From Candidatus Methylomirabilota bacterium (GTDB lineage: Bacteria; Methylomirabilota; Methylomirabilia; Methylomirabilales; 2-02-FULL-66-22), in assembly GCA_016209735.1 (NCBI GenBank), contig JACQVN010000030.1, positions 1 to 64,000 of the forward strand: a stretch of 64,000 nucleotides of DNA. Direction: 5' to 3'. Position numbers and translations under genes: made by a program. Below are positions 28,277 through 44,309 of the stretch, piece after piece. The notes beneath the pieces are model-generated. The model had not been told where the DNA came from and made no database searches. It saw only the letters and a program-made list of their open reading frames with translations. Numbering within the stretch: the stretch's first letter is position 1; every line of letters begins with the position of its first letter.

Positions 28277-29245
28277 ATGCAGGTGATCCGCGCCGCGCGT
28301 CCCGAGGAGTTCGCCTGGAGTCTTGTGCGCCCCGTGGTGGCCATCGGGACCATGGATGGGGTGCACCTTGGACACCAGGCGGTCCTGGCGAGCGCCCGGG
28401 AGCTGGCGGCGGCGCTCCACGGAACGGCGGCCGTTCTCACTTTTGCCCAGCATCCGCTGGAGGTGGTCCGGCCGGCGGAGGCGCCGGCGGTCATCACGCC
28501 GCTTCCGTTGAAGCTCCTGCTCCTGGAAGGCTGCGGGATGGAGGCGGCGCTCGCCATCGAGTTCTCCGCGGCCATGGCGGCCGTGGAGGCGGAGGCGTTC
28601 GTCAGCGACATCTTGTTCAAACGCCTGGGGGTAGCCGGTCTCGCCGTGGGCCACGATTTCGGCTTTGGCCGCGGTCGCCGCGGGACGGTGACACTCTTGA
28701 CCTCCATGGCGGCGAGCGCGGGGGTGAGCCTGGTCGTGGTGCCGCCCGTCCGGCTCGGCGAGCAGGTGGTATCCAGCCGCCATGTCCGGGGCCTCCTGGC
28801 GGCGGGACAGGTCGCCGAGGCCCGTCGCTTCTTGGGCCGGCCCTTCGCCGTGTTGGGCCAGGGGCAGCCCGGGGCGGGGCGGGGCCGGGGCCTGGGCTTT
28901 CCCACCGCCAACCTGGCGCTCCTGGGCCGACCGGTCCTCAAGGACGGGGTGTACGCGGGGCGGGTCCTGGTGCGTGGCGAGTATCGGGACGCCGTGATGA
29001 ACCTGGGGGTGGCGCCCACCTTTGGGGCGGGGGCGCGCCGGCTGGAGATCCACATCGCCGGATGGGCGGCTCCCCTGTACGGAGAGCGGCTGGTCGTCTA
29101 CATCCTGGAGCGGCTGCGGGACGAAGCGCGCTTCCCCGATGCTGCAGCCCTGAAAAGCCAACTGGAACGCGATCTGGCTGCGGCAGAGGCCGTCTGGGAG
29201 GCCGCGCGCGGGCTTCCCTGGCCAGAATGGACTTTACAGGCTTAG
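28277..29245 (+). CDS. ribF: Bifunctional riboflavin kinase/FMN adenylyltransferase; last codons supplied by the integrated element
   Basis: GTMDGVHLGHQAVL; GRGLGFPTANLAL; C-terminus ...EWTLQA*. Confidence 0.95.
   Translation: MQVIRAARPEEFAWSLVRPVVAIGTMDGVHLGHQAVLASARELAAALHGTAAVLTFAQHPLEVVRPAEAPAVITPLPLKLLLLEGCGMEAALAIEFSAAMAAVEAEAFVSDILFKRLGVAGLAVGHDFGFGRGRRGTVTLLTSMAASAGVSLVVVPPVRLGEQVVSSRHVRGLLAAGQVAEARRFLGRPFAVLGQGQPGAGRGRGLGFPTANLALLGRPVLKDGVYAGRVLVRGEYRDAVMNLGVAPTFGAGARRLEIHIAGWAAPLYGERLVVYILERLRDEARFPDAAALKSQLERDLAAAEAVWEAARGLPWPEWTLQA
29223..29240. repeat. attL core: 18-bp direct repeat cagaatggactttacagg
   Basis: Identical 18-mer at 43953-43970; next to the integrase 3' end. Confidence 0.9.
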
Positions 29246-30406
29246 CGGGAAATCACGGACTTCGCTGCGGCCACTTGCGCGGGAGTTGCGTCCACTTGCA
29301 CCGGCCGGGCGAGGATTTCGCCAATCACGTCCGCCGCCGCCCGCCCGGTCCCCGGCACAGCATGGCAATACGTGTTGATCGTCGTCGAGATGTCCTTGTG
29401 CCCCAACTGCCGACTGACGGTCAGGATGTCTACGCCCGCCCGAATCGCCAAGGTCGCGTAGGTGTGGCGGAGAATGTGCGGGTGAATGCGCCGCACCCCC
29501 GCTGCCGCCAGCGCCCGCCAGAGGGCCTCCCGCACGGGTGATTCGGTAAGGGGTCTGCCGTTGATGTCGCCGGGGAAGAGCCAGCGCGCCTCCGTCCCCC
29601 GCACGGCCGCCTCAGCTTGCACAATCTGCGCCTGCTTCACCAAGAGCGCCATCACCGCTTCCGGCACGGCCACGGCCCGCCCTTCCCCATTCTTCGGTGA
29701 GGAGATTTTCCCGCCGCGCCCCACCTCCCGGACCACAAGCACTTTCAAGCTCGTCTGATCGAGGTCGCCCGGTTGCAAAGCCAGGCCTTCGCCGATCCGC
29801 ACCCCCGTCGCCGCCAGCGCAACGAATACCGGGAAGAACCGGGGGCACACCCGCTCGGCCGCCGAAAGCGTCCGGTTGAGTTCCTCGCCGCTGAGGAAAT
29901 CCACCTTCCGAATCTCGCCGTCTCGCCGCCCAAGACGCCCCGCGATCCGAAGGGATGGGTCCTTTACCAGGTAGTCTTCCATCACCGGCCGTTGCGCGAT
30001 GCTGCGCAGGACCCCGCGATAATTGGCGAGGGTCTTTCGATCAAGCCCGCTCTCGCGTTGCCGCACCCACCAATCTTCGATTTGGCCCGCCGTCCGGGCC
30101 GTGATGTAGCTCCCCGAAGGCCGGGAGGATCTTGCTCCTGACGATGCCCTCATAGTTCCGCACGGTTCCGGCCTTCCAGGTTGGCGCGTTCGCCCTTAAC
30201 CATTGCTCTGCCACAGCCTTGACGGTCGGCACGGGGGTCTCGGACTCGAAACACTTCAGGTCCCCCAGCGTCAGCTTGGCCTGAATCGTCTGCGCCACAG
30301 CGAGGGCCGCCTTCTTGTGGCCCACGCGCTTGGCCTTCCGCTTGCTTTGGTGATTGATGAACACCCACCAGGCGCCGTCTTTCTCCCGAACCGTGACACC
30401 CGTCAC
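29242..30406 (-). pseudogene. int: Tyrosine recombinase split by a +1 frameshift near 30112-30115 (N-part ORF 30041-30406, GTG start; C-part ORF 29242-~30115)
   Basis: N-part SAM-like core-binding ...RSKILPAFG; C-part ITARTAGQIEDWW... with HILRHT, LGHKDISTTINTYCH catalytic motifs; parts join at a GGGG run. Confidence 0.85.
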
Positions 30407-30609
30407 GCACCTCCTTTTCGGGGCCTTGCGCGGGCCGGCTTCGCCAGGTACTCCTCCAGCGCATTCAGCATGACCGTGCGGAGGTCGCCTTCCTCGATTG
30501 CCCGCACCTTGGCCGCCTTCCACAATTCCTCCGGCATCAGGAGCGTCGTGCGAATCATGGTGGCGGATTCACCTCCCTTCGTCCCGACCATTCGGCGTCG
30601 CGGAGACAT
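30403..30609 (-). CDS. Ribbon-helix-helix type DNA-binding protein
   Basis: MIRTTLLMPEELWKAAKVRAIEEGDLRTVMLNALEEYL; stop overlaps integrase GTG start (GTGA). Confidence 0.65.
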   Translation of the reverse strand: MSPRRRMVGTKGGESATMIRTTLLMPEELWKAAKVRAIEEGDLRTVMLNALEEYLAKPARARPRKGGA

Positions 30610-30859
30610 CGCGTTCCTCCTTGTGGGGGAGTTGATGTGTTGCACCGATACACTAAAACTCTGCTACACTAATGTCAAGTGGGAATCGACGGACGAACAC
30701 TGAAATCGTGTGAGTGTTTCCGTGGTACGGGCTCCCCACGCCCGCTTGCTCGCCATCCGCCCCTGGGCCTCACGGTACACCGCTCGCAGAGTTCTCTTGC
30801 GGGTGAGGCCGGTGGCTTGTAGGATAACACTTACCGAAAGGGCGGACCGGGAAGGTGCT

Positions 30860-31108
30860 ATGGGTGCACAAACCGTGAGGGGCATGCGGGTGAAATACGA
30901 TGTCGGGAATGACGTACTGTACTGCTTCTTCGGGGAGCCCGAGGAAGCCGTGTCCTTCGAAGTGGCGGACGGCGTCCTGCTGCGCGTGGACCCGAACGAC
31001 GAGACCCGCGTGGTGGGCTTCACCGTCCTGGACCTCCGGCGCCGTTCCCTGGAGCAGCAAGGCTTCGATATCCCCTTCGAGACGGAGAATCTGAAAAGCG
31101 TGGCCTGA
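30860..31108 (+). CDS. DUF2283 (YuzE-like) protein
   Basis: MRVKYDVGNDVLYCFFGEPEEAVSFEVADGVLLRVDPNDETRVVGFTVLDLRR. Confidence 0.7.
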   Translation: MGAQTVRGMRVKYDVGNDVLYCFFGEPEEAVSFEVADGVLLRVDPNDETRVVGFTVLDLRRRSLEQQGFDIPFETENLKSVA

Positions 31109-31141
31109 GGCCGTCCGTTGACGGGAGAGAGGGGACCGACG

Positions 31142-31417
31142 ATGTTGACGCAGGCCATCGCCCAGAAACTCGACATGCCGCCCGAAGCCTTGGAGAAGGC
31201 CTCCTTGCGGGCGTTCCTGGAGGCTCGCCGTCGCGAGACCGAGGCGCAGCTCTTCCTCCTGGCCAAGAAACACGGCGTCCAGACCGTCCAGGAGTTCGAT
31301 GCCGCCGTCCAGGCGGGACGCATCCGCGAGGAAGATGGCTTCGAGGACTTCTTGGTTTTTGACCGGCTGGAAGCGGACCGGGAGAAGATTCTCGAAGCAC
31401 TCCAGAGCCTCCCGTGA
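31142..31417 (+). CDS. Small acidic helical protein, candidate antitoxin partner
   Basis: MLTQAIAQKLDMPPEALEKASLRAFLEARRRETEAQLFLLAKKHGVQTVQEFDAAVQAGRIREEDGFEDFLVFDRLEADREKI; adjacent to DUF2283. Confidence 0.55.
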   Translation: MLTQAIAQKLDMPPEALEKASLRAFLEARRRETEAQLFLLAKKHGVQTVQEFDAAVQAGRIREEDGFEDFLVFDRLEADREKILEALQSLP

Positions 31418-31424
31418 CGCGCCT

Positions 31425-31763
31425 TCATGGCGTTCGTTGCTTCCCGCCTGACGACGTGATCCGCATGTCCGCCAGAACGTCATTGACGATCTTGTCCACG
31501 TCAGGGACATGGCGGAAGGCTGCCATCCACTTGTCAAAGTCGGAGCGGCGCACCAGGATCTTGCCCGAGACGGCCCGGCGCCTGCCGTCTTTGCCCTGAA
31601 TGACGTGGGGCTCCTTCATGCGATAGCAGGGGAGCGGGTGCTCCGGGTCGGCCAGGTAGGCGCGGAGGGATCGCACGGACATGCCGGAGTAACCGCTCAG
31701 GGCCTCCAGGCCCATCCACGGGTCCAACTCCATGCCGATGCTCACGGCCTCAACGACCTTCAC
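31425..31763 (-). CDS. Helix-turn-helix (excisionase/MerR-like) protein
   Basis: GLEALSGYSGMSVRSLRAYLADPEHPLPCYRM...ILVRRSDFDKWM. Confidence 0.6.
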   Translation of the reverse strand: MKVVEAVSIGMELDPWMGLEALSGYSGMSVRSLRAYLADPEHPLPCYRMKEPHVIQGKDGRRRAVSGKILVRRSDFDKWMAAFRHVPDVDKIVNDVLADMRITSSGGKQRTP

Positions 31764-31792
31764 GCCGCGCTCCGCCTTCTAGCCACCCTGTC

Positions 31793-32251
31793 TCACCCGC
31801 TCGATCGCCGCATCACGCGCAGGATTCCGCCCCAGAACAGTTCCTCGGCCCGCCGGCGTCTCAGCCACCGCCGGACGCGGCGAACCTCGCACTTGGGGAT
31901 GTACTCCCGGCGGAGGCGCCACTCGTCTAATTCCGGATCCCAGGCCTTATATCTGAGAAACGAGTAGGGCCCATGCTTCATGCCACGGCTACAGCAACAC
32001 GCGGGCTTTCCGCAGTTGGTCCGCTCGGTCACGAGGTAGGGGTTTTCGATGTCCCCGCTGGGGATGCTCAAGTATCGGAACCGCTTGAGCGGGCGCGGCG
32101 ATTTCTGAGGGCAGACGGGGTCCTGCTTCTTCGGCCCCTCGCGCGCCGCTGAGTGACCGCCTGATACGTCTCGTGGATCAACTTGTCTCAGTCTAATCGC
32201 CGCTCTCCTCGAAGCCGACCACGCCCGCTTCAAGCGCGTCCGTCGCCGCAC
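31793..32251 (-). CDS. DUF6788-like protein (CGKPxCxC motif)
   Basis: NCGKPACCCSRGMKHGPYSFLRYKAW...REYIPKCEVRRVRRWL. Confidence 0.55.
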   Translation of the reverse strand: MRRRTRLKRAWSASRRAAIRLRQVDPRDVSGGHSAAREGPKKQDPVCPQKSPRPLKRFRYLSIPSGDIENPYLVTERTNCGKPACCCSRGMKHGPYSFLRYKAWDPELDEWRLRREYIPKCEVRRVRRWLRRRRAEELFWGGILRVMRRSSG

Positions 32252-32387
32252 GGTAGGCCGTCGCGCGACTCACCTCCGCGTCATGCCGGATCGCCGCAAC
32301 CAAGTCGGGAAGGGAGACACTCGCCTGGGTCTGGAAGAGCTTGTGCAGGATCGCTTGCACCTGCTCGGGAGAAGGCCGTCGTCTCAT
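32193..32387 (-). CDS. Small putative HTH protein
   Basis: VQAILHKLFQTQASVSLPDLVAAIRHDAEVSRATAYRAATDALEAGVV. Confidence 0.45.
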   Translation of the reverse strand: MRRRPSPEQVQAILHKLFQTQASVSLPDLVAAIRHDAEVSRATAYRAATDALEAGVVGFEESGD

Positions 32388-32554
32388 TGTCTCAACTCCT
32401 CACGTCTCACCGCGTTCGGTCTGCCTATCGGCGTCTAGGTTCGGGCAGCCTCTCCCCAAGCCCCAGCCGGGTCCTGCAGCTATGGCACAGGTCCAGGCCG
32501 CGAGTGATCAACGGGGGCGTGGCAGGTACTGAAAGACGTTCGGGCCTGCGTTTC

Positions 32555-32884
32555 TCACGGCCTCCCCTCCAGCGCCAGTTCTGCAGCCAAGGTGCACAGC
32601 TCGCAACGCAGCTCATCCTCACCTATCGGGGCACCGCACGAGGAGCAACCCTCCGCTGTCCACTTCGGGTCTCGCAGCCGGACGAATGGATCTGGGCCGG
32701 CCGTCGAAAGTTGCCGGGAGAAAACCGATACTCGGCGTAGGACCGCCTCGATTGTCCGCCGGTCCTGGCGGAGCGATTGAGCGAAGTCTGAGGGAACCAA
32801 GCGGGGGCTCAGGGCACCGTTCTCCCACGTGAGCAACCCGTGAGCTGCTAGGTGTTCAACGGTCGCTAGGCCACGGGCGCGCAT
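32555..32884 (-). CDS. Hypothetical protein with C-terminal Cys4 zinc ribbon
   Basis: CSSCGAPIGEDELRCELC; overlaps the 3' end of the prim-pol gene. Confidence 0.5.
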   Translation of the reverse strand: MRARGLATVEHLAAHGLLTWENGALSPRLVPSDFAQSLRQDRRTIEAVLRRVSVFSRQLSTAGPDPFVRLRDPKWTAEGCSSCGAPIGEDELRCELCTLAAELALEGRP

Positions 32885-34569
32885 GCTCGCTCCCTCCACA
32901 TCTGGTGTCGCTTGCAGAACTGAGAGCCCACCAGCGGGCGTCCGACACAGACCAGGCCGGCCCGGGTCGTGGCCTCGCAGCGCCGGTTGGGATCGGTCTT
33001 GACCAAGGGGGCCGCATCTTGCACCACCGCTTCCCGCAATGAGTCCGGCGGAGTCCAGTTCAGCCAGTCCTGCACGCCACCTTCCCAGACCGGCTTTCGG
33101 CTTCCATCGGCTTGAACCTGATAGACCCTCTTCCGAACTTCCGAGCTCATCTCGGAGTCCAGCCGCATGCTGGCGCGCACCTTCCCCATCCCCGCCGCTT
33201 CAACGCCTTGCGACAGCAGGGAACGGCCCGGAGAGAGCCCCAGACCGGGATCCTCTCTCCATTCATGATCAGAGAGCACATGTTCCGCACTTCCTGCGGA
33301 GTGGTTGCGGTTGACATGTTCCGCACTTCCTGCCGGTGGAGTCGCTTTGGCTCCGATAGTCATTGGGTATGCGCGGGGGACTCGAACGTAGGCCGATTGC
33401 GCTTCAGCGTCATTCAAGCTCGTTGCATCGGCCTCTCCTACGTCGACATCTTCCGCACTTCCTGCGGAGGTTGTCAGAGGCGGCGTCATCTGCAACCAGA
33501 GATTCCTCCGGCCACCTGGCGCCGGTCCTTTGCGGATAACGCCCGCCTCAGCCAGTTCGTCGGTCGCCTTCCCAATCCGGTCCTCGCTCACCCTGGCTTC
33601 AGCCGCCATACGGCGCATTGAAATACGCACAATGAACGATGGACGCTCCGCACGTACCACCAGGACGGGTAGCACCGCCTTGGCCCGCTCCGAGAGTTGC
33701 GCCATCGCCCCGGAGGTCACCACCCACGCGGGAAACTGGCCGAAGCCCGTGTGGGGTCGCGGCCGTGTACCGCCGGAGGCAAAGGCCTTCTCAACGGTGC
33801 GGCGCAAGTAGTCCGTCGTCCGGCCGCCGGCCACCGGCCACGGGGCATGCAAGAGGATCGCCGTCACCTCCTCCGGCGCGAAGTGATACCGTCTGGCACA
33901 ATGGGCCAGCGTCATATCCCTGCCGCTCCCGCTCCGGTCAGGGTGGTCCGCTATCTCGCCTTTCCATACCGCACGGACTGAGGGATATTGAGCCACCAAC
34001 TGAAGCCACCGTTGCGGGGGTCCCTCGTTCGCCGGCATCGAATGTGCCGACGGCTTAGGGAACAGGTCCATTACTCGTTGGGGTAATTCCGCAAGCGGTG
34101 TGTCCGGATCTTCAAAACAATAGATCAGCCCGGAGGGATGCACGGCCGGCGGCGCTAGGACGGACTCTCCGTCCGCCCGAAGCTCAATTGCATCACCACC
34201 GGGTAGACGCAGGGAGCGTGAAACAAGTGGCCCAGCATGGTGAAAATATCGATGGCGTCCTCGCATCGTCCGTACGGTAAGGGTCGTCGGCAAGTTCAGA
34301 CCTTCAACCAGCGCCTCGGTTTCTCGCCCGTCTGTGTCGAGAACCGCAAGGCCAGACACCTTTCCGCAACCGACGGCCACGTTCGGGTTTCCGCCCTCAG
34401 CCGCGAAGTCAGCTCGCAACTCGTTCGGCGTGGCCCGGCGGCGTTGCCACTTCTTCCAGGGTCGCACACGTGTCTTGCTCCCTTCAGGCACCGCCATGGC
34501 CGCCCAGCCGCGTGCCAGGTACTCAAGGCCCGCCCGCAACGTCGGGGCGTCGGTCGGTCTCATGCTCAT
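32866..34569 (-). CDS. Bifunctional primase-polymerase (prim-pol/AEP) domain protein
   Basis: LEYLARGWAAMAVPEGSKTRVRPWKKWQ; GCGKVSGLAVLDTDG; TVRTMRGRHRYFHH. Confidence 0.8.
   Translation of the reverse strand: MSMRPTDAPTLRAGLEYLARGWAAMAVPEGSKTRVRPWKKWQRRRATPNELRADFAAEGGNPNVAVGCGKVSGLAVLDTDGRETEALVEGLNLPTTLTVRTMRGRHRYFHHAGPLVSRSLRLPGGDAIELRADGESVLAPPAVHPSGLIYCFEDPDTPLAELPQRVMDLFPKPSAHSMPANEGPPQRWLQLVAQYPSVRAVWKGEIADHPDRSGSGRDMTLAHCARRYHFAPEEVTAILLHAPWPVAGGRTTDYLRRTVEKAFASGGTRPRPHTGFGQFPAWVVTSGAMAQLSERAKAVLPVLVVRAERPSFIVRISMRRMAAEARVSEDRIGKATDELAEAGVIRKGPAPGGRRNLWLQMTPPLTTSAGSAEDVDVGEADATSLNDAEAQSAYVRVPRAYPMTIGAKATPPAGSAEHVNRNHSAGSAEHVLSDHEWREDPGLGLSPGRSLLSQGVEAAGMGKVRASMRLDSEMSSEVRKRVYQVQADGSRKPVWEGGVQDWLNWTPPDSLREAVVQDAAPLVKTDPNRRCEATTRAGLVCVGRPLVGSQFCKRHQMWRERACAPVA
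33279..33465. repeat. Three 19-bp direct repeats (catgttccgcacttcctgc) inside the prim-pol C-region
   Basis: 33279-33297, 33315-33333, 33447-33465 (catC in the last); encode repeated AGSAE(H/D)V. Confidence 0.85.
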
Positions 34570-34636
34570 TGCTCGGTCCCGCTGCCGGAACCCGCAGCCG
34601 TGCCGATGGGGTGCGCGGGCCGGGTCGCCGTCGCGG

Positions 34637-34837
34637 TCATCGCTGACCCAATCCCGCCGCGCGTTTGGGATCGAAGCCCACACGGGCCATGGCCTCCACG
34701 TCCGAATCGCGGAGGCGAACCGCTCGCCCAATGCGCACGCAGTTCAAGTGCCGGAGAGAAAGCCACTTCCGCAACGTGGCAGGGGCAAGCGCAAGCCGAT
34801 CTGCAGCTTCTGGGATCGTTAGGAGCCTTTCGGTCAC
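34637..34837 (-). CDS. Excisionase/AlpA-like HTH protein
   Basis: LTIPEAADRLALAPATLRKWLSLRHLNCVRIGRAVRLRDSDVEAMA; GTG start preceded by AGAGGAGG. Confidence 0.7.
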   Translation of the reverse strand: MTERLLTIPEAADRLALAPATLRKWLSLRHLNCVRIGRAVRLRDSDVEAMARVGFDPKRAAGLGQR

Positions 34838-34934
34838 TTTCTGCCCTCCTCTGAAGTGCGCCGGTTGAGGGCAGACTACCACCCGGAGATTGCGGCTGTC
34901 ATAGAGGGAATAAAACGTTACCGGCGAGGGGTAA

Positions 34935-36194
34935 CTACTTCAAAGATCGAGGATAGCGGGGGAAATTCAGAATGCTGATCGTTCCAGCCTTCCGTTGGGC
35001 CGAGAACCACTCAGCCAGAGATTGGCCAGGCGCGACAAGCGAGGGCTCACGAATCTGAATCACCACGGGCTTTCCTGTGGATTCCAGAGGGCGAAAGCCT
35101 GCCATCTCCTCCCATTGCTTTCGGAACCGTCGCCATGGGATACGTCGATCGGCAACTTCTGAGACAAGGGAACCTCTCAAAGCATCCCCCACCACCCATC
35201 GGATTCTTCCCCTGACGCGCGGAAGCTCAGGTGAAAGGGTCGAGCGCACTCGACGCACTTCCCGACGGAGGGCCTCTGCGTGACTGTCCTTCTCCCCATT
35301 CTCTCGCCTGCTTTCCTCCTCCTCGGCCACTGCTCCCCTTGCGACAAATTCGCGGGAGAGTTCCGCGATGAGCTTCCACATCCGAAAGCACCCATTCGTG
35401 ACGCGGGTGCAATGATCTACCGCGATCACTTGGAAGACGCGCAGTGCCCAGAGGAAAGGATCTCTGGAGACGGGTCGGCGGCCTTGGCGCCGTCGGTCAG
35501 ATGGCGGCGGCTTGAAAACGATGCACAGGCTTCCAGGTTCGCCGGGGATTTCTTTCGGCGACTTACCTCGTCGCTCCCGGTAGCTGCGAACCCGTAGCTT
35601 GGTGGCTCGACGCAACTCCCCCCGCGCGGCCAGCAGCGCGTTGGGCGACGTGGTTTCCTTCAGGAGCCACCAGAGGGCTCCAATGACGAAGTGGGCGTTA
35701 TGGCCCAAGCGCCGCACTAATTCCCGGACATGTCTCGACTCGCGAAGGCGGCGGTAGAACTCCGCCTCACGCACAGCGTGAAGGTAGGACAGGAAATAGA
35801 AGTACGAGTCCATGGGATCCCGCGGGGCTTGCATAGCCCGTGAGATGATCTCCCGGCTCCGCGCTGCCCACGGGGTGAGAATCTGTCCGAGACGTGCGGG
35901 GGAGGGCGGGAAGACCCACTCGTCTGGCATACCGGGGAGGATGAAATTCTGTGCCACCAGGACTTCTTCATACTCGCGCTGCCCCAGATGCTTTAGGAAC
36001 TGCAGGTGGCAAGGTAACGCTCGCTTCTTGCGTCGGCGAAACAAGCGCGCGAGGGCGTCCCATCGAGCGCGTGTACTCCCCTCCGGGGAGTTTTGCTCTG
36101 CTACATCTGTGCGCCGAACCTTGGCTATTTTGCAGACCGGCGCATCGTTCGGCTGCTGGTCCTTCGGATGGGATCCAGGAGGTTTGCTTGGCAT
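34935..36194 (-). CDS. Unknown cargo protein, 419 aa
   Basis: Long ORF without a family I recognise. Confidence 0.5.
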   Translation of the reverse strand: MPSKPPGSHPKDQQPNDAPVCKIAKVRRTDVAEQNSPEGSTRARWDALARLFRRRKKRALPCHLQFLKHLGQREYEEVLVAQNFILPGMPDEWVFPPSPARLGQILTPWAARSREIISRAMQAPRDPMDSYFYFLSYLHAVREAEFYRRLRESRHVRELVRRLGHNAHFVIGALWWLLKETTSPNALLAARGELRRATKLRVRSYRERRGKSPKEIPGEPGSLCIVFKPPPSDRRRQGRRPVSRDPFLWALRVFQVIAVDHCTRVTNGCFRMWKLIAELSREFVARGAVAEEEESRRENGEKDSHAEALRREVRRVRSTLSPELPRVRGRIRWVVGDALRGSLVSEVADRRIPWRRFRKQWEEMAGFRPLESTGKPVVIQIREPSLVAPGQSLAEWFSAQRKAGTISILNFPRYPRSLK

Positions 36195-37563
36195 CGCCCC
36201 TCCCGAAGGAGGCCCGAGTGGATCCCCGGCCAGGCCATTCGGGAGACCATTTCTCGGGAGCGCCGGGGGTGCAACAGCTATCGCACTTACCCCTCCGCGT
36301 GTCCGTCGTGCTATCTGCTATGAAGCCCCGGATAACCCAACGAATCGAAAAAAAGAGCACCCACGGAATTGTTGCCGCGCCGACCGCTGCGCTTGCCCCC
36401 AGCAACCACTCCCAGGCAGAAAGCGGAGTGGATATTGGGTTGCCGATGAACTGCTTCTTGCGCAATTCTGCCAGATCGGCTTTTTCCTCCGGCGTGAGTG
36501 TGCCTCTGGCTTCGGCTTGCAGAATCGCCTTCCTGCTGTACAAGATGGAGGGTCTGTTGGCAGAAGCGGGAGAATAATAATAATGGAGGAAGGCGGACCC
36601 CTCTTCGTACGGAGCAAGGCAGAAACCGAGGCGTGGTCCCGTTGTAGCATCATTATCAAGGGCCTCCTTAATCGCCGACTCCGTTGTTCCGTCATCAAAA
36701 CAAACGGGTCTCCCACCACTTCTATTTGATGCTGCCGCGTATACAAAGGAGGTGCCACCTTGATCCAGTATTTCGCCCGCGCGATGCCATTTCTCCCGGC
36801 GAGCCCCATCCATAAGGGCAACAAGAGAAAAGACTGCAAAGAACAGGAGCACAGAGAGCAGCCAGGTAATCCGCCGGAACCCCCGCTCGACGTTTATGGT
36901 CTTACCCGCGCCGGCGGAAACCGCGCAAGAGGCACGCCGGTGCCCTTCGCGTATCAGACGTGGCCATGACGGCTCCCAATATTGTGTGCGGCTAAGAGCG
37001 GTCAGCATCCAGCGCAGCAACCCGGTGAGCCCTGCAACGGTGCCACCCGCCACCACGATCAGCAATGCCAAACGGCCCGTCTCGGAGAATCCCTCTGTCG
37101 CTTGTATCCACCATGGAGTAGTGTTCACCCAGCGCGCCGTCTGCCACACCGCGTACATCAGCGCGAGCGTCAGCGCAACGCCGGTCCACTCCGCCACAGC
37201 GTACTGACTCCGTTTCAGGTCAGGCCGCGTCGGCTCCGGCTGCCCGCCCTCTGGCTCCCATGCCTCCCAGGCGCGCCGGTATGCCCGTGATGCGCGCCAC
37301 TCTAACACCTGGATTACGCACGATATGCTGACTCCACAGAAGATACTCCCCACCGCCCCAACTACCGGCAGGAGTACGGCCAAGAGCGAGATGAAGGAGA
37401 TCCACGCGACCACCCGCTCCCCGAGAGGTCGAGGCGGACTCGTCCCCGACCAAAAAACTATCAGAGCAAAGAGGATGAGCAATACGGTCCAAGGAACCCA
37501 CCACAGGCCCCACAGCCTGAAAATCCAATTTCGCACCATCTGCAGGGAGCTGTGGATTTTCAC
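35968..37563 (-). CDS. Unknown multi-TM membrane protein, 531 aa (3' end overlaps the 419-aa ORF)
   Basis: About 5-6 hydrophobic segments, e.g. WTVLLILFALIVFW, ITWLLSVLLFFAVFSLVALM, ATIPWVLFFSIRWVI. Confidence 0.6.
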   Translation of the reverse strand: MKIHSSLQMVRNWIFRLWGLWWVPWTVLLILFALIVFWSGTSPPRPLGERVVAWISFISLLAVLLPVVGAVGSIFCGVSISCVIQVLEWRASRAYRRAWEAWEPEGGQPEPTRPDLKRSQYAVAEWTGVALTLALMYAVWQTARWVNTTPWWIQATEGFSETGRLALLIVVAGGTVAGLTGLLRWMLTALSRTQYWEPSWPRLIREGHRRASCAVSAGAGKTINVERGFRRITWLLSVLLFFAVFSLVALMDGARREKWHRAGEILDQGGTSFVYAAASNRSGGRPVCFDDGTTESAIKEALDNDATTGPRLGFCLAPYEEGSAFLHYYYSPASANRPSILYSRKAILQAEARGTLTPEEKADLAELRKKQFIGNPISTPLSAWEWLLGASAAVGAATIPWVLFFSIRWVIRGFIADSTTDTRRGKCDSCCTPGAPEKWSPEWPGRGSTRASFGRGDAKQTSWIPSEGPAAERCAGLQNSQGSAHRCSRAKLPGGEYTRSMGRPRALVSPTQEASVTLPPAVPKASGAARV

Positions 37564-37978
37564 CGTCTTCTCCGTTACCCCATCGTCTCCGCTTCCATCG
37601 GCGGTCCCGGGCAGCGCCGGGCCGAGGCAGGACGTGCCGCCGCGTAGGCAGACTTCCCGCGGGCGATGATGCTCAGCAGCCGTCGGTTAACCGAGCACCA
37701 CATTGATTGGGACCTTATCCGGCCTCAAGCAATAAGGCCCTTGACCGTACTGGGCCAAGGGCCTACGTTTCGAGTAGCCGCACCTGGCCGATCAGGTCGC
37801 GGTCAGTCGAAGGACCTCGCCGATGGCACCGCGGGGCCCGTCGCCTGCCATCTCACTTCGTCATGGCTTCAACCTGCACGCCTCCCGAGTCTCCGCGTCA
37901 AGGGACGTCTTGATGACGGACGCCGAAAGCTTTTCTGCGGGGGTCCTCATTGCCTGGCGCAGTTCATGGCGCGTCGAG

Positions 37979-38070
37979 GTTCTTTCCAAAAATCTCGCGA
38001 CGAAAATGCCATTCACAGAAACTCGTCTTGCGATTCCTCCATCCGGTTCCGGTCGCCGGCACCATTCCTG
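37979..38070. repeat. R-repeat copy 1 (diverged ~65-90 nt motif)
   Basis: Aligns by eye with 38825-38905 and 43340-43410. Confidence 0.6.
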
Positions 38071-38261
38071 CCTCCCCTCGCGATCGATAGCTCAGGGAGG
38101 GTGAGACTCATTCGAACGACATCAGCCGTTCTCGCATCGCCCGTTCCACGTTCTGCGTGATTCGAAGCGGCCACTCCTTCAGCCGGTTGCGCATGGCCGC
38201 GGCCGACACCGCGTACAGGCGGGCCAACCGCTCGGCCAAGTGGGCTTCCACCGCCGCGGGG

Positions 38262-38447
38262 TCACCAAACCCGACCGCCGTGACCAGTTAGGGGTACACG
38301 GCGCGCGCCTCCCGGGACATGGTGATGGTCGGCATCAGGAGGGCCGCCGCCCCCGAGGAGCGCCTCCACGAGCCAGGCGACCATGGTCGCGACGACAATC
38401 CAGAGCGAGGCATCCGATCCATAGGCGAGGCAGGGGCGTGGGGTCAT
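38262..38447 (-). CDS. Small hydrophobic peptide 2, copy A (61 aa)
   Basis: MTPRPCLAYGSDASLWIVVATMVAWLVEALLGGGG...; ATGA overlap with peptide 1; intact in both module copies. Confidence 0.45.
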   Translation of the reverse strand: MTPRPCLAYGSDASLWIVVATMVAWLVEALLGGGGPPDADHHHVPGGARRVPLTGHGGRVW

Positions 38448-38551
38448 CGGACAGGACTCCCGTCCCCAAAGATGGCCATGAGGAGGTCGACGATGGCCTG
38501 CGCCACCATCGCCCAGAGCGAGAGATCCGAGATCAGGCTGAGGAGATGCAT
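38444..38551 (-). CDS. Small hydrophobic peptide 1, copy A (35 aa)
   Basis: MHLLSLISDLSLWAMVAQAIVDLLMAIFGDGSPVR. Confidence 0.5.
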   Translation of the reverse strand: MHLLSLISDLSLWAMVAQAIVDLLMAIFGDGSPVR

Positions 38552-38940
38552 TGGGGCCTCCTCCCCCGGACACTGACCGGGAAGTCGAGGACCTCGATGT
38601 GGGTGAAGCCGGCCGCGCGGTATGAGCGAAACGGGCCAACCGCCCGCAATATTCGGAAGGAGCGAGCGCCCTAAGGTGGCTTCGAGGGAACGCTCACCCC
38701 AAATCCTACGCCTAACCGCCGTGCGGAGCCAACCCGAAGCTCGGCCCGCCCTCAGCCCGCGCCGGAATGCGGCAAGGAGGGGAAGGGGAATCTTCAACGG
38801 TCGGGGGGGGGAGTGGCCCCGGGTTTTGGCCCAAAATTTCGCGGCGGAAATGCGATTCACGGAAATCCGTCTGGCGGTTTCTCCGTCCGGTTGGCCTGCC
38901 AGGCCCATTTCCCGTCGGAGACGGCAGGCCGGGGAGACGA

Positions 38941-39444
38941 CTACCGGACGGCCAGAGCGGCCGGCGAGAGCACCAACTTTGCCGGACGGTGGCGCTTCCG
39001 CGCGATGGACCGCAGGGCATCCCGAATCCGCTGGAGGTGGGGCGGTAACGGCGCGGTCTCGTCAATGCACCACACGCCGTAGACCAGCCGGATGAGCCGA
39101 TCGCTCGGGGGGCCGATGGGTTCGGCGCCGGTCTCCCACCGCGTGACGCTTTCCCGTTGGACCCCGACAATCTCCGCCAGGTCTTGGGCGCGGAGGCCCA
39201 TCTGCTTGCGGAGGAAGCGGAACTCGGGGCCGCTGAGGGGTCGCGGTTCCTGCGCGAGCCAATCCGCGATCCCCCGATGGAGCCGGCGGGAGTTCGGGAT
39301 CTCGGGCAATTCGGCCGCGCAGCGCCGGCACCGGTAGACCGTGATCCCCTTCAGCCACAAGTTTGGAATCCCGCTCTCCGGGTACGGAATCGTCCGGTTC
39401 CGATGTGCCCGCATCCGCGTGCCGCAGTCCAAGCATCGCATCAT
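38941..39444 (-). CDS. YgiT/MqsA-type zinc finger + XRE HTH antitoxin-like protein
   Basis: CLDCGTRM...YRCRRCAAELPEI; FRFLRKQMGLRAQDLAEIVGVQRESVTRWETG. Confidence 0.75.
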   Translation of the reverse strand: MMRCLDCGTRMRAHRNRTIPYPESGIPNLWLKGITVYRCRRCAAELPEIPNSRRLHRGIADWLAQEPRPLSGPEFRFLRKQMGLRAQDLAEIVGVQRESVTRWETGAEPIGPPSDRLIRLVYGVWCIDETAPLPPHLQRIRDALRSIARKRHRPAKLVLSPAALAVR

Positions 39445-39466
39445 GGTGCCTCACCCCCCTCGCCGA

Positions 39467-39799
39467 TCAGTAGGCAGTGATCAGGATCAACCGGAAATTG
39501 GCTTCGTCGATGCACACAACCACGTGGAGTTCGTTCCCTCCCACATCGGTGCCGGCCATATCGTAATTGTGGGCCCGGTGCTCCGGCTTCCATTGCCCCG
39601 GCCGAAGAACGGCCCCGTGTTCGAGAACGTGGTTCACATCCCCCATGTCGGCGTTGGCCCGGGCCAATTCGCGCACGAAGTGCTCGGTGCGGCTGAAGGG
39701 TCCCCCCTCCAGGAAGACGCGCCGAATCGCGGTCGTCGCCTGGGCAGGGGTGAGAGACTGTGGTGGTCGGTCGTCCGGTGTTCTTCCTCGTGTGCCCAC
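39467..39799 (-). CDS. DUF4258-type toxin-like protein
   Basis: FSRTEHFVRELARANADMGDVNHVLEHGAVL...YDMAGTDVGGNELHVVVCIDEANFRLILITAY; directly upstream of the MqsA-like gene. Confidence 0.7.
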   Translation of the reverse strand: MGTRGRTPDDRPPQSLTPAQATTAIRRVFLEGGPFSRTEHFVRELARANADMGDVNHVLEHGAVLRPGQWKPEHRAHNYDMAGTDVGGNELHVVVCIDEANFRLILITAY

Positions 39800-40149
39800 C
39801 GTAGTCTCCTGTGTAACATTTCCTCACATGATCCGTCAACGGAAAACTGCGGTCCACCCGGGCGGGGGCCGACTCTGCAGAAGAATCGCCGACAATTCTT
39901 CGGGCTACAGACCGTGGCCGCGGGCATCTCAACTGGTAGTGAGCACTGCGCTCAGGAAGTGATCATCCTACTGCTTCGTTGGCCACCACCTGGCCGGCGC
40001 GCAATTGACGCCCTGACAATTGATGATTTCTCTCGTTCACGATGGCCCGGCGCCCGCAGGGTAACGGGCTTTTGGTCGAAGGTTTTGGGCTCCCGGAGGA
40101 TCTCACCGCAGGTCGTGGCCGACGTGGGCTGCATCAGCAAGAGCGAGGG

Positions 40150-40590
40150 TCAGAGTTTGGTGTGGGTAAGATCCACCCAGCCGCACGCGAAACAAAACGC
40201 TCGCCCCGGATTGAAGGTCGCAAGGTTCAGGAACACATCGTGGATCTGAACACGAGACGGGTCGCGCTCGTTATTGTGCTGCTCGCAAAGGCTCAAGAGC
40301 CACTCCCCTATTGATGGTGTCAACGCCGGGTTCCACTCACCCGTTTCACGGTCCACGGAGAAGAACGGGTTTCCAAGACCGAGGACCCCGGCGGGATGGA
40401 CACGCCCCCACCTTGTTCCGTCCGGCAGCGTGATCACCGCCCTCCCGTCCGCGATCTGCTCCCAGAGGCCCTCGGTATCATGTGGCTCCCTTATGTACTC
40501 ACGGGCCTCCTCTAGACTGTGGAATCGGACCTCCCGCTCGATTGGAAGGGGTTTGATCACAAAACCTTCAAGGTCCAGCGACCATTTCAT
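40150..40590 (-). CDS. Hypothetical protein, 146 aa
   Basis: Plausible coding composition; no family recognised. Confidence 0.45.
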   Translation of the reverse strand: MKWSLDLEGFVIKPLPIEREVRFHSLEEAREYIREPHDTEGLWEQIADGRAVITLPDGTRWGRVHPAGVLGLGNPFFSVDRETGEWNPALTPSIGEWLLSLCEQHNNERDPSRVQIHDVFLNLATFNPGRAFCFACGWVDLTHTKL

Positions 40591-40969
40591 AGTGTCTGAC
40601 CTCCGCGTTACAAGCGAACTTGGCAGAGAAGAGGCAGCCCTTCACGGCGACGCCCTCCGTGGTGGCACGAAGACTCCAACGAAAAAGAGAGGGAAAGATC
40701 ATCAAGGGCCAGGCGGCCCTGGTCATCCGGGTGGTGGAGTGGGTGCCCCCGGGGTGTTAGTGGGGACGCCCACCTGAACGCTACCAGCACCACCTGCGCG
40801 AGTCAGTCGCTCTCCAGGCTGCGAGCCGGCCAACGGGTCGGGCTCGGCGTACCCTGCTGTCGGCTCCACCGCCCCGCGACGATCGCCCCTGCCTCCCGGC
40901 CCCCGGCTGTCCACCGGCCCCCTCGGCCCGCCGCCCGCTCCTCTGCGCCCGGCCTCTTCGGGGCCTCCG

Positions 40970-41413
40970 ATGCCGCCTCACGCGGGCGCGGGAGCCATTC
41001 GGATCATCAGGGCTGGCGCGCCACGAAGGGCCGCGGCTATCGCGGCCCAAGAAGCCGACGATAGCAAGAAGCTTGCCGCCGGATTACGGTGGCGGATCTG
41101 CTCGCCCTCGCGAGCCTCCCCCTCGAAACCGACCCTCTCTTTGTCCCTGCCTGAGCCGACCGCCCGTCTCGCGGAAGCCCGCCGGCTGACGACCGCCTAC
41201 CAGGCCGGGGGTCCCGATGCGGTTCAGGCCTTCCGTGACCTCGTCGATATGCCGGCGGATGTCACCATCACCGCGCAGCAGGTGGAGGTGAGCTTCCACC
41301 GCCGATCTCACCTGCCCACCGTGTTAACCTCGGGGCTCCTGGACCAGCCCGTGCCCATCCCGTGGTGGAACGGCGTCCCCTTGCGCCTGACCACCTACCA
41401 CGGACCTGCGTGA
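40970..41413 (+). pseudogene. Possible C-terminal remnant of a transposase-like protein
   Basis: C-part ADVTITAQQVEVSFHRRSHLPTVLTSGLLDQPVPIPWWNGVPLRLTTY looks like a conserved tail; N-part low complexity. Confidence 0.3.
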
Positions 41414-41466
41414 TCACTCAATTCTTAGGAGCCGTTCTCGTCGATCTGTCGGCCTGGGTTGCCTCT

Positions 41467-42114
41467 TCAGTCGGCGAGGGAGAGCGCCTTAGCGTCGAGG
41501 GCCCGATCAACTTTCCGCAGGACCTCCACAGGCCAGCGCTCGAGGCGGTACTGCATGGGACCGACGTTGACCACGTACCGCTGACTGAGACGGATTACCA
41601 GGGAGCGTCTGAATACCGCGAGCCGGTCAAAGCCGTACTGCTTGACCAATCCGGCATACACCTGGCGGGCATCCTGGAGCAGCGGGGTCGAAGGCATCAA
41701 GAGGGCCGAGGCAAACCACTTGGCATTCCGGTCCAGATACTCGTAGTCGGAAGACGCATGCAGCATGGCCGCCTCTTCCACCGAGTGGACGTGGCGAAGG
41801 ACCGGCCGGTGCAGGTGGAGATGTCCCAATTCCTCGCCAACCGTGAAGCGGTAGAAGCCGGGGTTCCCATCGGCGACCGCCTCGTCAATCAGGACGGTGA
41901 AACGATCCTCCTTGGGGTGGTAGACCGTCACCCCGGGGACGCCGAATTGTGCCTGCAAGCCCCGCTCGGTATCGAGGGTCACCCCAGGCTCCCGCTCCGT
42001 GAGCAGCTCGATATCCACGGGAATCGTGAGGCCTGGCCAGCGTTCGCGCAGGAGATCGCACGCGAGGGATTCCAGTTTGGTCAGCGCGTAACGCGGGATC
42101 GGCGGCGTGCTCAT
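41467..42114 (-). CDS. ImmA/IrrE-family metallopeptidase-like protein
   Basis: FTVGEELGHLHLHRPV (HExxH-like position reads EELGHLHLH); ASALLMPSTPL. Confidence 0.75.
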   Translation of the reverse strand: MSTPPIPRYALTKLESLACDLLRERWPGLTIPVDIELLTEREPGVTLDTERGLQAQFGVPGVTVYHPKEDRFTVLIDEAVADGNPGFYRFTVGEELGHLHLHRPVLRHVHSVEEAAMLHASSDYEYLDRNAKWFASALLMPSTPLLQDARQVYAGLVKQYGFDRLAVFRRSLVIRLSQRYVVNVGPMQYRLERWPVEVLRKVDRALDAKALSLAD

Positions 42115-42506
42115 CGCTTGCGGCGTTTCCGGTTGATGAACCGGGTGAGTTCCGCGATTTCCTCCTTCGTCAAGCGCCGGTTCTGGAGGGTGCGCAGCAT
42201 CACGGGGATGCCCGGAGTCCTGGCGGCGAACGCCGCGACATCCGGCGGGAGCGTCTGTTTCTTGTGGGCGACGGCGAGGTCAAAAAGACGGTCCCGCTCT
42301 TTCGAACCCTCCGGGAAGCCAAGCGTCTCGGCGATCCGGCCCAGGATCCCGAGGTCTTGGGGGGGCGGAATCCGTCCATGCTCCACATTGCTGAGATTGG
42401 ATGGTTGCATGTCGACGGCTTCGGCGAACACCCGTAGCCCAAAGCCGGCCTTCAACCGGCAGGCCCGCAGGTACTCACCGAAGGTTTCCCTCTTTGCCAT
42501 GGCCAC
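42111..42506 (-). CDS. XRE-family HTH regulator (ImmR-like)
   Basis: FGEYLRACRLKAGFGLRVFAEAVDMQPSNLSNVEHGRIPPP; ATGA overlap with the ImmA-like gene. Confidence 0.8.
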   Translation of the reverse strand: MAMAKRETFGEYLRACRLKAGFGLRVFAEAVDMQPSNLSNVEHGRIPPPQDLGILGRIAETLGFPEGSKERDRLFDLAVAHKKQTLPPDVAAFAARTPGIPVMLRTLQNRRLTKEEIAELTRFINRKRRKR

Positions 42507-42638
42507 CCCCTTCGCGGGAAGTTATATGTCTCATATAACATACGCTTCCCATCCGGTGGTGTCAACCGGTTCTTCCATTCGGCCAGGGCCTCGGGAGAGC
42601 CCGTTCCGTCGCGAGCGGCAGGCCGGGAAGCGTGCGAC

Positions 42639-42870
42639 TCATTCGAGCGACATCAGCCGCTCTCGCATCGCCCGTTCCACCTTCTGCGTGATCCGAAGCG
42701 GCCACTCCTTCAGCCGGTTGCGCATGGCCGCGGCAGATACCGCATGCTGGCGGGCCAACCGCTCGGCCAGGTGGGCTTCCACCGCCGCGGGGTCACCAAA
42801 TCCGACCGCCTTGACCAGTTGGGGGTACGCGGCGCGCGCCTCCCGGGACACGCTGATGGTCGGCATCAGG
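42639..42870 (-). pseudogene. ImmA/IrrE C-terminal remnant
   Basis: AALLMPTISVSREARAAYPQLVKAVGFGDPAAVEAHLAERLARQHAVSAAAMRNRLKEWPLRI; copy A (38107-38340) carries an in-frame TAA. Confidence 0.6.
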
Positions 42871-42978
42871 AGGGCCGCTGGCCCCGAGGAGCGCCTCCAC
42901 GAGCCAGGCGACCATGGTCGCGACGACAATCCAGAGCGAGGCATCCGATCCATAGGCGAGGCAGGGGCGTCGGGTCAT
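42793..42978 (-). CDS. Small hydrophobic peptide 2, copy B (61 aa)
   Basis: MTRRPCLAYGSDASLWIVVATMVAWLVEALLGASG... Confidence 0.45.
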   Translation of the reverse strand: MTRRPCLAYGSDASLWIVVATMVAWLVEALLGASGPPDADHQRVPGGARRVPPTGQGGRIW

Positions 42979-43082
42979 CGGACAGGACTCCCGTCCCCAA
43001 AGATGGCCATGAGGAGGTCGACGATGGCCTGCGCCACCAAGGCCCAGAAGGAGAAATCCGAGACGAGCGCGAGCGAATTCAT
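42975..43082 (-). CDS. Small hydrophobic peptide 1, copy B (35 aa)
   Basis: MNSLALVSDFSFWALVAQAIVDLLMAIFGDGSPVR. Confidence 0.5.
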   Translation of the reverse strand: MNSLALVSDFSFWALVAQAIVDLLMAIFGDGSPVR

Positions 43083-43952
43083 TGCGGTCTCCTGCCCCGG
43101 ACACTGACCGGGAAGTCGAGGACATCGATGTGGGTGAACCCAGCCGCGCGGTATGAGTGAAACGGGCCGGCTGCCCGCAGTATACGGAAGGAGCGAGCGC
43201 CCCGAGGTGGGTATGGGGAAGCGCTCTAGAAACAGCCTACGCCTAAGCGTCATTCCGAGTCAATCCGAATCCCGGCCCGCCCTCAGCCCGCGCCGGAATA
43301 CCAGCCAGGAAGGGATACGGCCGGTGAATCTTCAACGAATTTTGGCCCGAGATATTTTGGGGGAATGCCGTTTCTGGGGCTCGGCCTGGGCGTTTCTCCG
43401 TCCGGTTCCTGTTCCCGGCGCCCTACCTGTCTCCCCTCTTCCCCCCTGCCCAACGCGCCCCTCCGGGACTTGCCCAGGTGCTCCCTGCTCACCCTTCCTG
43501 GATCCGGGCGTCTAAGGATTGGCCTTCGCTGACACTGGCCCGACCTTCCCCCTCGCCCGTGCCGTCCTGTGGGTCCGCTGGTCCCACTCCGCAATCAGCG
43601 CAGTCCAGCCGATCCTTTGGCCTCTGTTGCTGTTCCAGGCCGGCCAGGTTGGCCGATCTCGGAGTGGCGGCTACCTTGTGGGGGCGTTCAGCGGCTTGAT
43701 GTCTCCCCCCCCCTCGTGGCGGGGACCGGGGTTGCCGGTTGCCCGATGTGCGTCGAGCGTAGTTGCGGAGCGCCCCTCACGTGGTCGCCGACGTACTACA
43801 CTAGTACCCGGTCCGGCCCCCGCCTCCGGGGGAGGCCAGCCCGATCCTCCCCCGGATTTTCCGCTTGCGCGGGGCTTGCATTTCCTGCCTCGAAATGGTA
43901 ATTTTTGCCACCCTGTTTCCCTTAAGTTCCCGCCAGTTACGCCCCTTCAAGG

Positions 43953-43970
43953 CAGAATGGACTTTACAGG
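43953..43970. repeat. attR core: 18-bp direct repeat cagaatggactttacagg
   Basis: Retains displaced original ribF 3' end: gaa tgg act tta cag ggg tag. Confidence 0.9.
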
Positions 43971-44039
43971 GGTAGGCCCCTATGGTAATTTCGCCAATTG
44001 CCAAGAATTCACACTGGGCTCGAAAGGAGGGGAGCGATC

Positions 44040-44309
44040 ATGCCCAAGGAATGGTCGAACAAGGGAGAAGTCATCGGGCAATACCGCCGGCACGATACGG
44101 ACACCGGTTCGCCCGAAGTGCAGATCGCCCTCCTCTCGGGGCGCATCGGGTACCTGACCGAGCACCTGAGCGTTCATAAGAAGGACCACCACTCGCGGCG
44201 CGGCCTCCTCATGCTGGTCGGCCGGCGGCGGAAACTGCTGGACTACTTGAAGATCAAGGACATGGACGGCTACAAGCGAGTCATCGAAAGGCTAGGCATT
44301 CGCAAATGA
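44040..44309 (+). CDS. rpsO: 30S ribosomal protein S15
   Basis: [44 protein letters not shown]. Confidence 0.97.

What the first reader, a model, noticed from the sequence alone, without database searches (positions are those of the whole stretch)
29223..43970. 14.7-kb integrative element using the 3' end of ribF as attachment site
Sequence: the 18-mer cagaatggactttacagg occurs at 29223-29240 inside the last codons of ribF and again at 43953-43970 just before rpsO. In frame, attL reads GAA TGG ACT TTA CAG GCT TAG and attR reads GAA TGG ACT TTA CAG GGG TAG. Thus the element regenerates a complete ribF, changing only the last residue (G to A), and leaves the displaced native tail on the far side. 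The integrase gene ends at 29242, so its stop codon (on the minus strand) overlaps the ribF stop codon supplied by the element. Knowledge: tyrosine-recombinase elements usually target tRNA 3' ends; a flavin-biosynthesis gene as attB would be an unusual site.
Basis: partly seen in the sequence, partly recalled or inferred. Interest (0 to 1): 0.78.

Follow-up and report, generated by a model that had tools for sequence, protein, structure and literature searches.

The report
Mobile element inserted at promoter box
A 14.7-kb mobile DNA element in an NC10 bacterium sits in the "minus 35" box of the promoter of a ribosomal-protein gene, which overlaps the end of ribF; its relatives sit in the same box of other housekeeping promoters, each time leaving the promoter's DNA whole, so gene promoters seem to serve as landing sites the way tRNA genes usually do.

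Summary
An exact 18-bp repeat bounds a 14.7-kb element with a tyrosine integrase between ribF and rpsO, and six same-genus genomes have the junction empty with one site copy. The reading changes: the conserved attachment site is not the ribF gene end but the sigma-70-type promoter of rpsO (TTTACA-N17-TAATTT), whose -35 box overlaps the ribF tail in most families of the order. In another family ribF stops upstream and the promoter motif stays. The repeated core leaves a complete promoter at attR and a complete ribF at attL (last residue G to A).

This is not a one-off. The three nearest integrases, same genus, lie in elements at the promoters of rho, a proteasomal ATPase and a lipoprotein. A shared arm-site motif finds further ends at a Tat-protein, secD and HU promoter. 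In five of seven cases the -35 box lies 82-83 bp from the arm site. These integrases form one fully supported group beside tRNA-targeting cousins. The window's own integrase is frameshifted, so this copy may be immobile. I found no description of an integrase lineage specialised on -35 boxes; single prophages in promoter regions are known. Promoter function is inferred, not measured.

The parts
28277..29245 (+). ribF, last codon and stop supplied by the element (...EWTLQA*)
   Evidence: ORF; native tail at attR reads ...EWTLQG*
29223..29240 (+). attL core CAGAATGGACTTTACAGG (orphan -35 copy, no -10 behind it)
   Evidence: sequence
29274..29290 (+). left arm-type site CTTGCGCGGGAGTTGCG, 33 bp inside the core
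   Evidence: shared with sister elements
29242..30523 (-). tyrosine integrase, split by a frameshift (PF14659 part 30041-30523, PF00589 part 29242-30153)
30403..30645 (-). Arc-like / ribbon-helix-helix small protein (ORF as listed; likely starts inside)
   Evidence: phrog_6506
30860..31108 (+). DUF2283 protein, 74% identical to one in the rho-site element of G004
31425..31733 (-). small HTH-like protein near int, with relatives in all four elements; candidate excisionase
   Evidence: 67% identical in L089, 29-36% in L090/L091; HTH_17 below cut-off
32866..34731 (-). Prim-Pol primase/polymerase
   Evidence: PF09250 1.4e-23
34637..34882 (-). HTH_17 excisionase/regulator-like protein
38941..39444 (-). 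MqsA-like HTH antitoxin candidate
   Evidence: HTH_3; MqsA_antitoxin below cut-off
39467..39799 (-). DUF4258 toxin candidate
   Evidence: PF14076
41467..42114 (-). IrrE/ImmA-like M78 protein
   Evidence: PF06114
42111..42506 (-). HTH repressor-like protein
   Evidence: PF13560
43864..43880 (+). right arm-type site CTTGCGCGGGGCTTGCA, 72 bp before the core
43953..43970 (+). attR core
43963..43968 (+). -35 box TTTACA of the rpsO promoter, inside the core
43986..43991 (+). -10 box TAATTT of the rpsO promoter, native side
44040..44309 (+). rpsO

Best explanation
This is a 14.7-kb integrative element that entered the chromosome by tyrosine-recombinase recombination at the -35 box of the rpsO promoter, which in this genus overlaps the last codons of ribF. 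Shown: the ends, the empty site in relatives, the 18-bp duplication, arm-type sites inside both ends, and the motif TTTACA-N17-TAATTT kept at attR. Also shown: the three nearest-relative integrases lie in elements at other promoter-like sites (before rho, a proteasomal ATPase and a lipoprotein), and element ends with the same arm motif lie at three more (before a Tat-signal protein, secD and HU). Inferred: the integrase lineage uses the -35 hexamer as the centre of its core site. Because the core carries the hexamer, strand exchange leaves a complete promoter on the right (element upstream, native -10 downstream) and a harmless orphan half on the left; where the core lies in a coding tail, the element supplies replacement codons and a stop. 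This is the tRNA-end logic applied to promoters. This copy is probably stranded, since its integrase reading frame is broken.
For: Direct repeat and chance level; empty ribF-rpsO in six relatives. The promoter motif occurs once in each of seven genus genomes, always at rpsO, and persists in f4 where ribF ends upstream. Nearest integrases (52, 42, 41%) lie at coaE/rho, fmdB/proteasomal ATPase, engB/lipoprotein. Empty sites there show TTGACA-N17-TAGAGT, TTGACA-N16-TAAGAT and TTGACG-N17-TAGAGT. attL/attR cores AAAAGACTTGACACCCC (17 bp) and ATTCACGTTGACGGC (15 bp) were found. A search with the arm motif GTTGCGCGGGGGTTGCG gave further ends at Tat-protein, secD and HU promoters, where homology to empty relatives starts about 5-14 bp before the -35. 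Arm-to-hexamer distances: 82, 83, 83, 82, 83, 77, 92 bp (rho value read). Promoter-site integrases form one group, support 100/100, in a tree with tRNA-site cousins. Such a motif lies within 15 bp of 0.18% of window positions.
Against: No transcription data: the promoters are inferred from sequence and conservation. The rho-site element lacks a recognisable attL core. attL and the integrases of the Tat, secD and HU elements were not found, so their link to this integrase lineage rests on the arm motif. Five of 14 arm-motif hits do not sit at such a promoter or are unresolved (G002:C222, G004:C227, G021:C167, G010:C162, G010:C201). The secD hexamer is weak (TTGCAA). The HU -10 (TATAGG) fails the strict TANNNT pattern. 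The promoter rule was noticed while reading junctions, so the statistics are after the fact.
Confidence: 0.82

Rival explanations
1. An ordinary element that uses the 3' end of a protein-coding gene (ribF) as attB; the promoter overlap is a coincidence of compact genomes.
For: The core does lie in ribF codons and the element restores the frame. Sisters also lie near coaE and engB 3' ends.
Against: The proteasomal-ATPase site is about 235 bp past fmdB and intergenic; HU and secD sites are intergenic too. What is shared by all seven is the -35 box at nearly constant distance from the arm. In f4 ribF and the motif are separate.
Confidence: 0.08
2. The integrases are indifferent to promoters as such; insertions elsewhere were lost by selection, and -35 boxes survive because the core duplication makes them harmless.
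For: Essential genes (rpsO, rho, secD) tolerate insertion only if the promoter is restored; tRNA sites are explained in the same way (own knowledge).
Against: Most of a genome is not essential, yet the well-resolved ends all lie at promoters, with the hexamer at a near-fixed distance from the arm. Each element also carries a 15-18 bp core that matches its own promoter.
Confidence: 0.08
3. Assembly or binning artefact: foreign DNA joined between ribF and rpsO.
For: G000 is a metagenome-assembled genome, 69% complete.
Against: truB-ribF on one side and rpsO-pnp on the other in canonical order, perfect 18-bp duplication, matching arm sites at both ends, and related elements in other genomes with the same architecture.
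Confidence: 0.02

Closest known systems
tRNA-site tyrosine-integrase elements (NC10 cousins L040, L041, L052, L094; class in general)
   Same: Same integrase family (PF00589), int at the attL end, target restored by the core duplication.
   Different: Target is a promoter -35 box instead of a tRNA 3' end; the promoter-site integrases form a separate, fully supported group.
dusA-specific integrative elements / SGI1-like (PMC8409611)
   Same: Site in a conserved housekeeping gene; the element repairs what it splits.
   Different: There the element enters the 5' end of the coding sequence and brings a new promoter and reading frame; here the native promoter is kept by a core that contains its -35 box.
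HK022 prophage at torS-torT (PMC6814406) and SpyCI at mutL (PMC3430984)
   Same: Insertion upstream of a gene, with consequences for its transcription.
   Different: HK022 replaces the native promoters by a phage promoter; SpyCI separates mutL from its operon promoter. Neither is described as restoring the native promoter through the core.
E. faecalis pp7 / EfCIV583 phage-related island (PMC3675006)
   Different: A single site; the passages I read report no -35 core and no relatives at other promoters.
CTnDOT-type conjugative transposons (own recall, not tested; no paper found)
   Same: I recall an attB consensus resembling the Bacteroides -7 promoter box.
   Different: Different phylum, promoter type and integrase behaviour; recalled, so only a lead.

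Membership tests
Tyrosine-recombinase integrative element | integrase of the phage-integrase family with the catalytic residues | tested here: met
   PF00589 E 1.7e-22; R, HxxR, H and Y motifs visible in alignment A1; but reading frame broken in this copy
Tyrosine-recombinase integrative element | direct-repeat core at both ends and a single copy in empty relatives | tested here: met
Tyrosine-recombinase integrative element | arm-type sites inside both ends | tested here: met
   (sequence only; binding not tested)
Tyrosine-recombinase integrative element | excision to a circle | not testable with these tools
   needs reads or PCR
Integrative and conjugative element | relaxase and type IV secretion genes | tested here: not met
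   no such family among the element ORFs scanned
Prophage | capsid, terminase, tail genes | tested here: not met
   none among ORFs scanned
Phage satellite / integrative plasmid-like element | integrase, excisionase, primase or replicase, no virion genes | tested here: inconclusive
   int, HTH proteins and Prim-Pol present; helper dependence cannot be tested
Promoter-site (-35) integrase group proposed here | -35 hexamer inside the core, complete promoter at attR, arm-to-hexamer spacing near 82 bp | tested here: met
   82 bp in the window; 82-83 bp in five of seven sites

The most novel reading that the evidence does not exclude
A lineage of tyrosine integrases in NC10 bacteria has specialised on sigma-70 -35 hexamers as attachment sites, so that promoters of essential genes serve as safe, self-restoring landing sites. 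Members switch between promoters by changing a 15-18 bp core around the hexamer.
Probability: 0.7. Interest if true: 0.72.

Novelty: new variant of a known kind. Interest (0 to 1): 0.63.

Why it matters
Why integrases favour tRNA ends is an old question; the usual answer is conservation plus self-restoration. A lineage that lands on promoter -35 boxes instead gives an independent test of that answer. It also offers candidate integration sites for element finders, which mostly look at tRNA genes and gene ends. It predicts insertions that change what lies upstream of housekeeping promoters without destroying them.

Tried and rejected
ribF-specific literature and rpsO-site literature: nothing relevant. 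A promoter-like sequence at 43865-43905 first looked like a second rpsO promoter; it contains the right arm site. IMG/VR relatives of the integrase: only 23-40% identity; the single arm-motif hit in IMG/VR (L331) looks like chance. Close integrases in GTDB genomes: only an NC10 genome at 42%, the rest distant (about 25-35%; higher only over short segments). Phage and plasmid collections: only distant hits. Defence genes: none convincing. CTnDOT promoter parallel: no paper in the library. G010 arm hits (one near a tRNA-Gln-like sequence, one near a gene end resembling an M20 peptidase) left unresolved.

Full report
Observation. The 18-mer is exact at 29223-29240 and 43953-43970 and nowhere else, even with three mismatches. 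attL finishes ribF with GCT TAG, attR carries the native GGG TAG, and the integrase stop overlaps the ribF stop supplied by the element. All six same-genus genomes have ribF directly before rpsO with one copy of the site. The gene order truB-ribF-[element]-rpsO-pnp is canonical (order from own knowledge). The integrase, however, is split: tblastn with an intact sister integrase matches residues 2-106 in one frame and 108-372 in the next frame, meeting near 30107. This is a metagenome bin (69% complete), so a consensus error cannot be excluded, but the plain reading is a broken integrase.

The site is a promoter. In the empty junctions the core is followed by TTTACA-N17-TAATTT just before rpsO. 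The pattern occurs once in each of the seven genus genomes, each time at this place. In genomes of family f4 ribF ends 125-149 bp before rpsO while TTTACA-N18-TANNNT lies at -103 to -116, outside ribF (L024, L027). The conserved object is thus the promoter, and the 'WTLQ/WALQ' tail of RibF in the other families is coding sequence laid over it. After integration the right end keeps the -35 (in the duplicated core) plus the native spacer and -10; the left end has an orphan hexamer. So both neighbours are served: ribF gets a new last codon, rpsO keeps a complete promoter.

Relatives show the same rule. The three best integrase matches are in the same genus and none is beside a tRNA. G004:C268 lies after engB; empty relatives have TTGACG-N17-TAGAGT before a lipoprotein-like gene, and attL and attR share ATTCACGTTGACGGC. 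G005:C57 (the same contig as METI01000057.1, NC10 bacterium RIFCSPLOWO2_12_FULL_66_18) lies about 235 bp after fmdB; attL and attR share AAAAGACTTGACACCCC over 9.3 kb, and the promoter before a proteasomal-ATPase gene is complete at attR. G004:C222 lies at coaE; attR keeps AAAAAACTTGACAAAGCC and TAGAGT before rho, but no core is recognisable at attL, perhaps through a deletion that also extended the integrase frame into coaE. Names of the neighbouring genes come from my reading of their translations, not from a family search.

Arm-type sites. All four elements carry a repeated motif near GTTGCGCGGGGGTTGCG inside the ends. Searching for it in 13 genomes found 14 places. Three new kinds of right end stand before promoters of a Tat-signal protein (G004:C294), secD (G001:C459) and HU (G012:C155 and G021:C24); homology to empty relatives begins about 5-14 bp before the -35 box. 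Five arm hits do not fit or are unresolved. The distance from arm end to the hexamer is 82 (rpsO), 83 (proteasomal ATPase), 83 (lipoprotein), 82 (rho, degenerate arm, read), 83 (Tat), 77 (secD) and 92 bp (HU). Such constancy is expected if the hexamer sits at the strand-exchange centre; that step is inferred.

Chance. A TTGACA-like hexamer (up to 2 mismatches) with TANNNT at 16-18 bp begins within 15 bp of a random window position in 0.18% of cases; six of seven sites pass this strict pattern. Under a far milder null, insertion anywhere in a 200-bp stretch before a gene that has one promoter, a site would fall in such a 15-bp interval about 7.5% of the time, so seven of seven is about 1e-8 (own arithmetic). 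The rule was noticed while reading junctions, so these figures are after the fact.

Tree. The four promoter-site integrases form one group with support 100/100, apart from nine tRNA-site cousins and other relatives. Labels 'tRNA' come from ARAGORN within 500 bp of the integrase stop. The root is arbitrary, so which kind of site came first is not shown.

Cargo. Prim-Pol primase, HTH proteins that may be excisionases, DUF2283, DUF4258 with an MqsA-like protein, and an HTH/IrrE-like pair; no relaxase, secretion or virion genes were found among the ORFs scanned. A small HTH-like gene near int has relatives in all four elements. The sister at rho has a DnaB-N/DUF3987 protein where this one has the Prim-Pol. 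The element is plasmid- or satellite-like rather than a prophage or ICE.

Comparison. Known single cases of insertion in or before promoters bring their own promoter or separate a gene from it (PMC6814406, PMC3430984, PMC8409611), or are noted without detail (PMC3675006). I found no description of an integrase lineage that lands on -35 boxes and keeps them; the library is open-access only and my searches were few.

Verdict. Observation confirmed; interpretation shifted from 'ribF 3' end' to 'rpsO promoter -35 box'; a new variant of a known kind, with a testable rule.

Noticed in passing
G000:C21:64727-65575 (just past the window end; L092): A second tyrosine integrase (519-aa frame, about 40% identical) next to tRNA-Cys, 20 kb from the element.
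   Followed up: partly
window 38075-38374 and 42606-42905: 300-bp direct repeat inside the element, 91% identical, around what reads like a C-terminal fragment of an IrrE-like protein.
   Followed up: no
window 30041-30153: Frameshift between the two parts of the integrase.
   Followed up: yes
L289 (G001:C459) upstream of secD: A repeat of about 125 bp occurs about 20 times in G001, G002 and G005; REP/MITE-like.
   Followed up: no
L089:5840-5900 (G004:C222): Integrase frame of the rho-site element runs into the coaE 3' end and the attL core is missing.
   Followed up: partly
L295:3512 (G004:C227): Degenerate arm motif about 290 bp before a TTGACA promoter-like site of a PhoH-like gene; possibly a decayed element end.
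   Followed up: no
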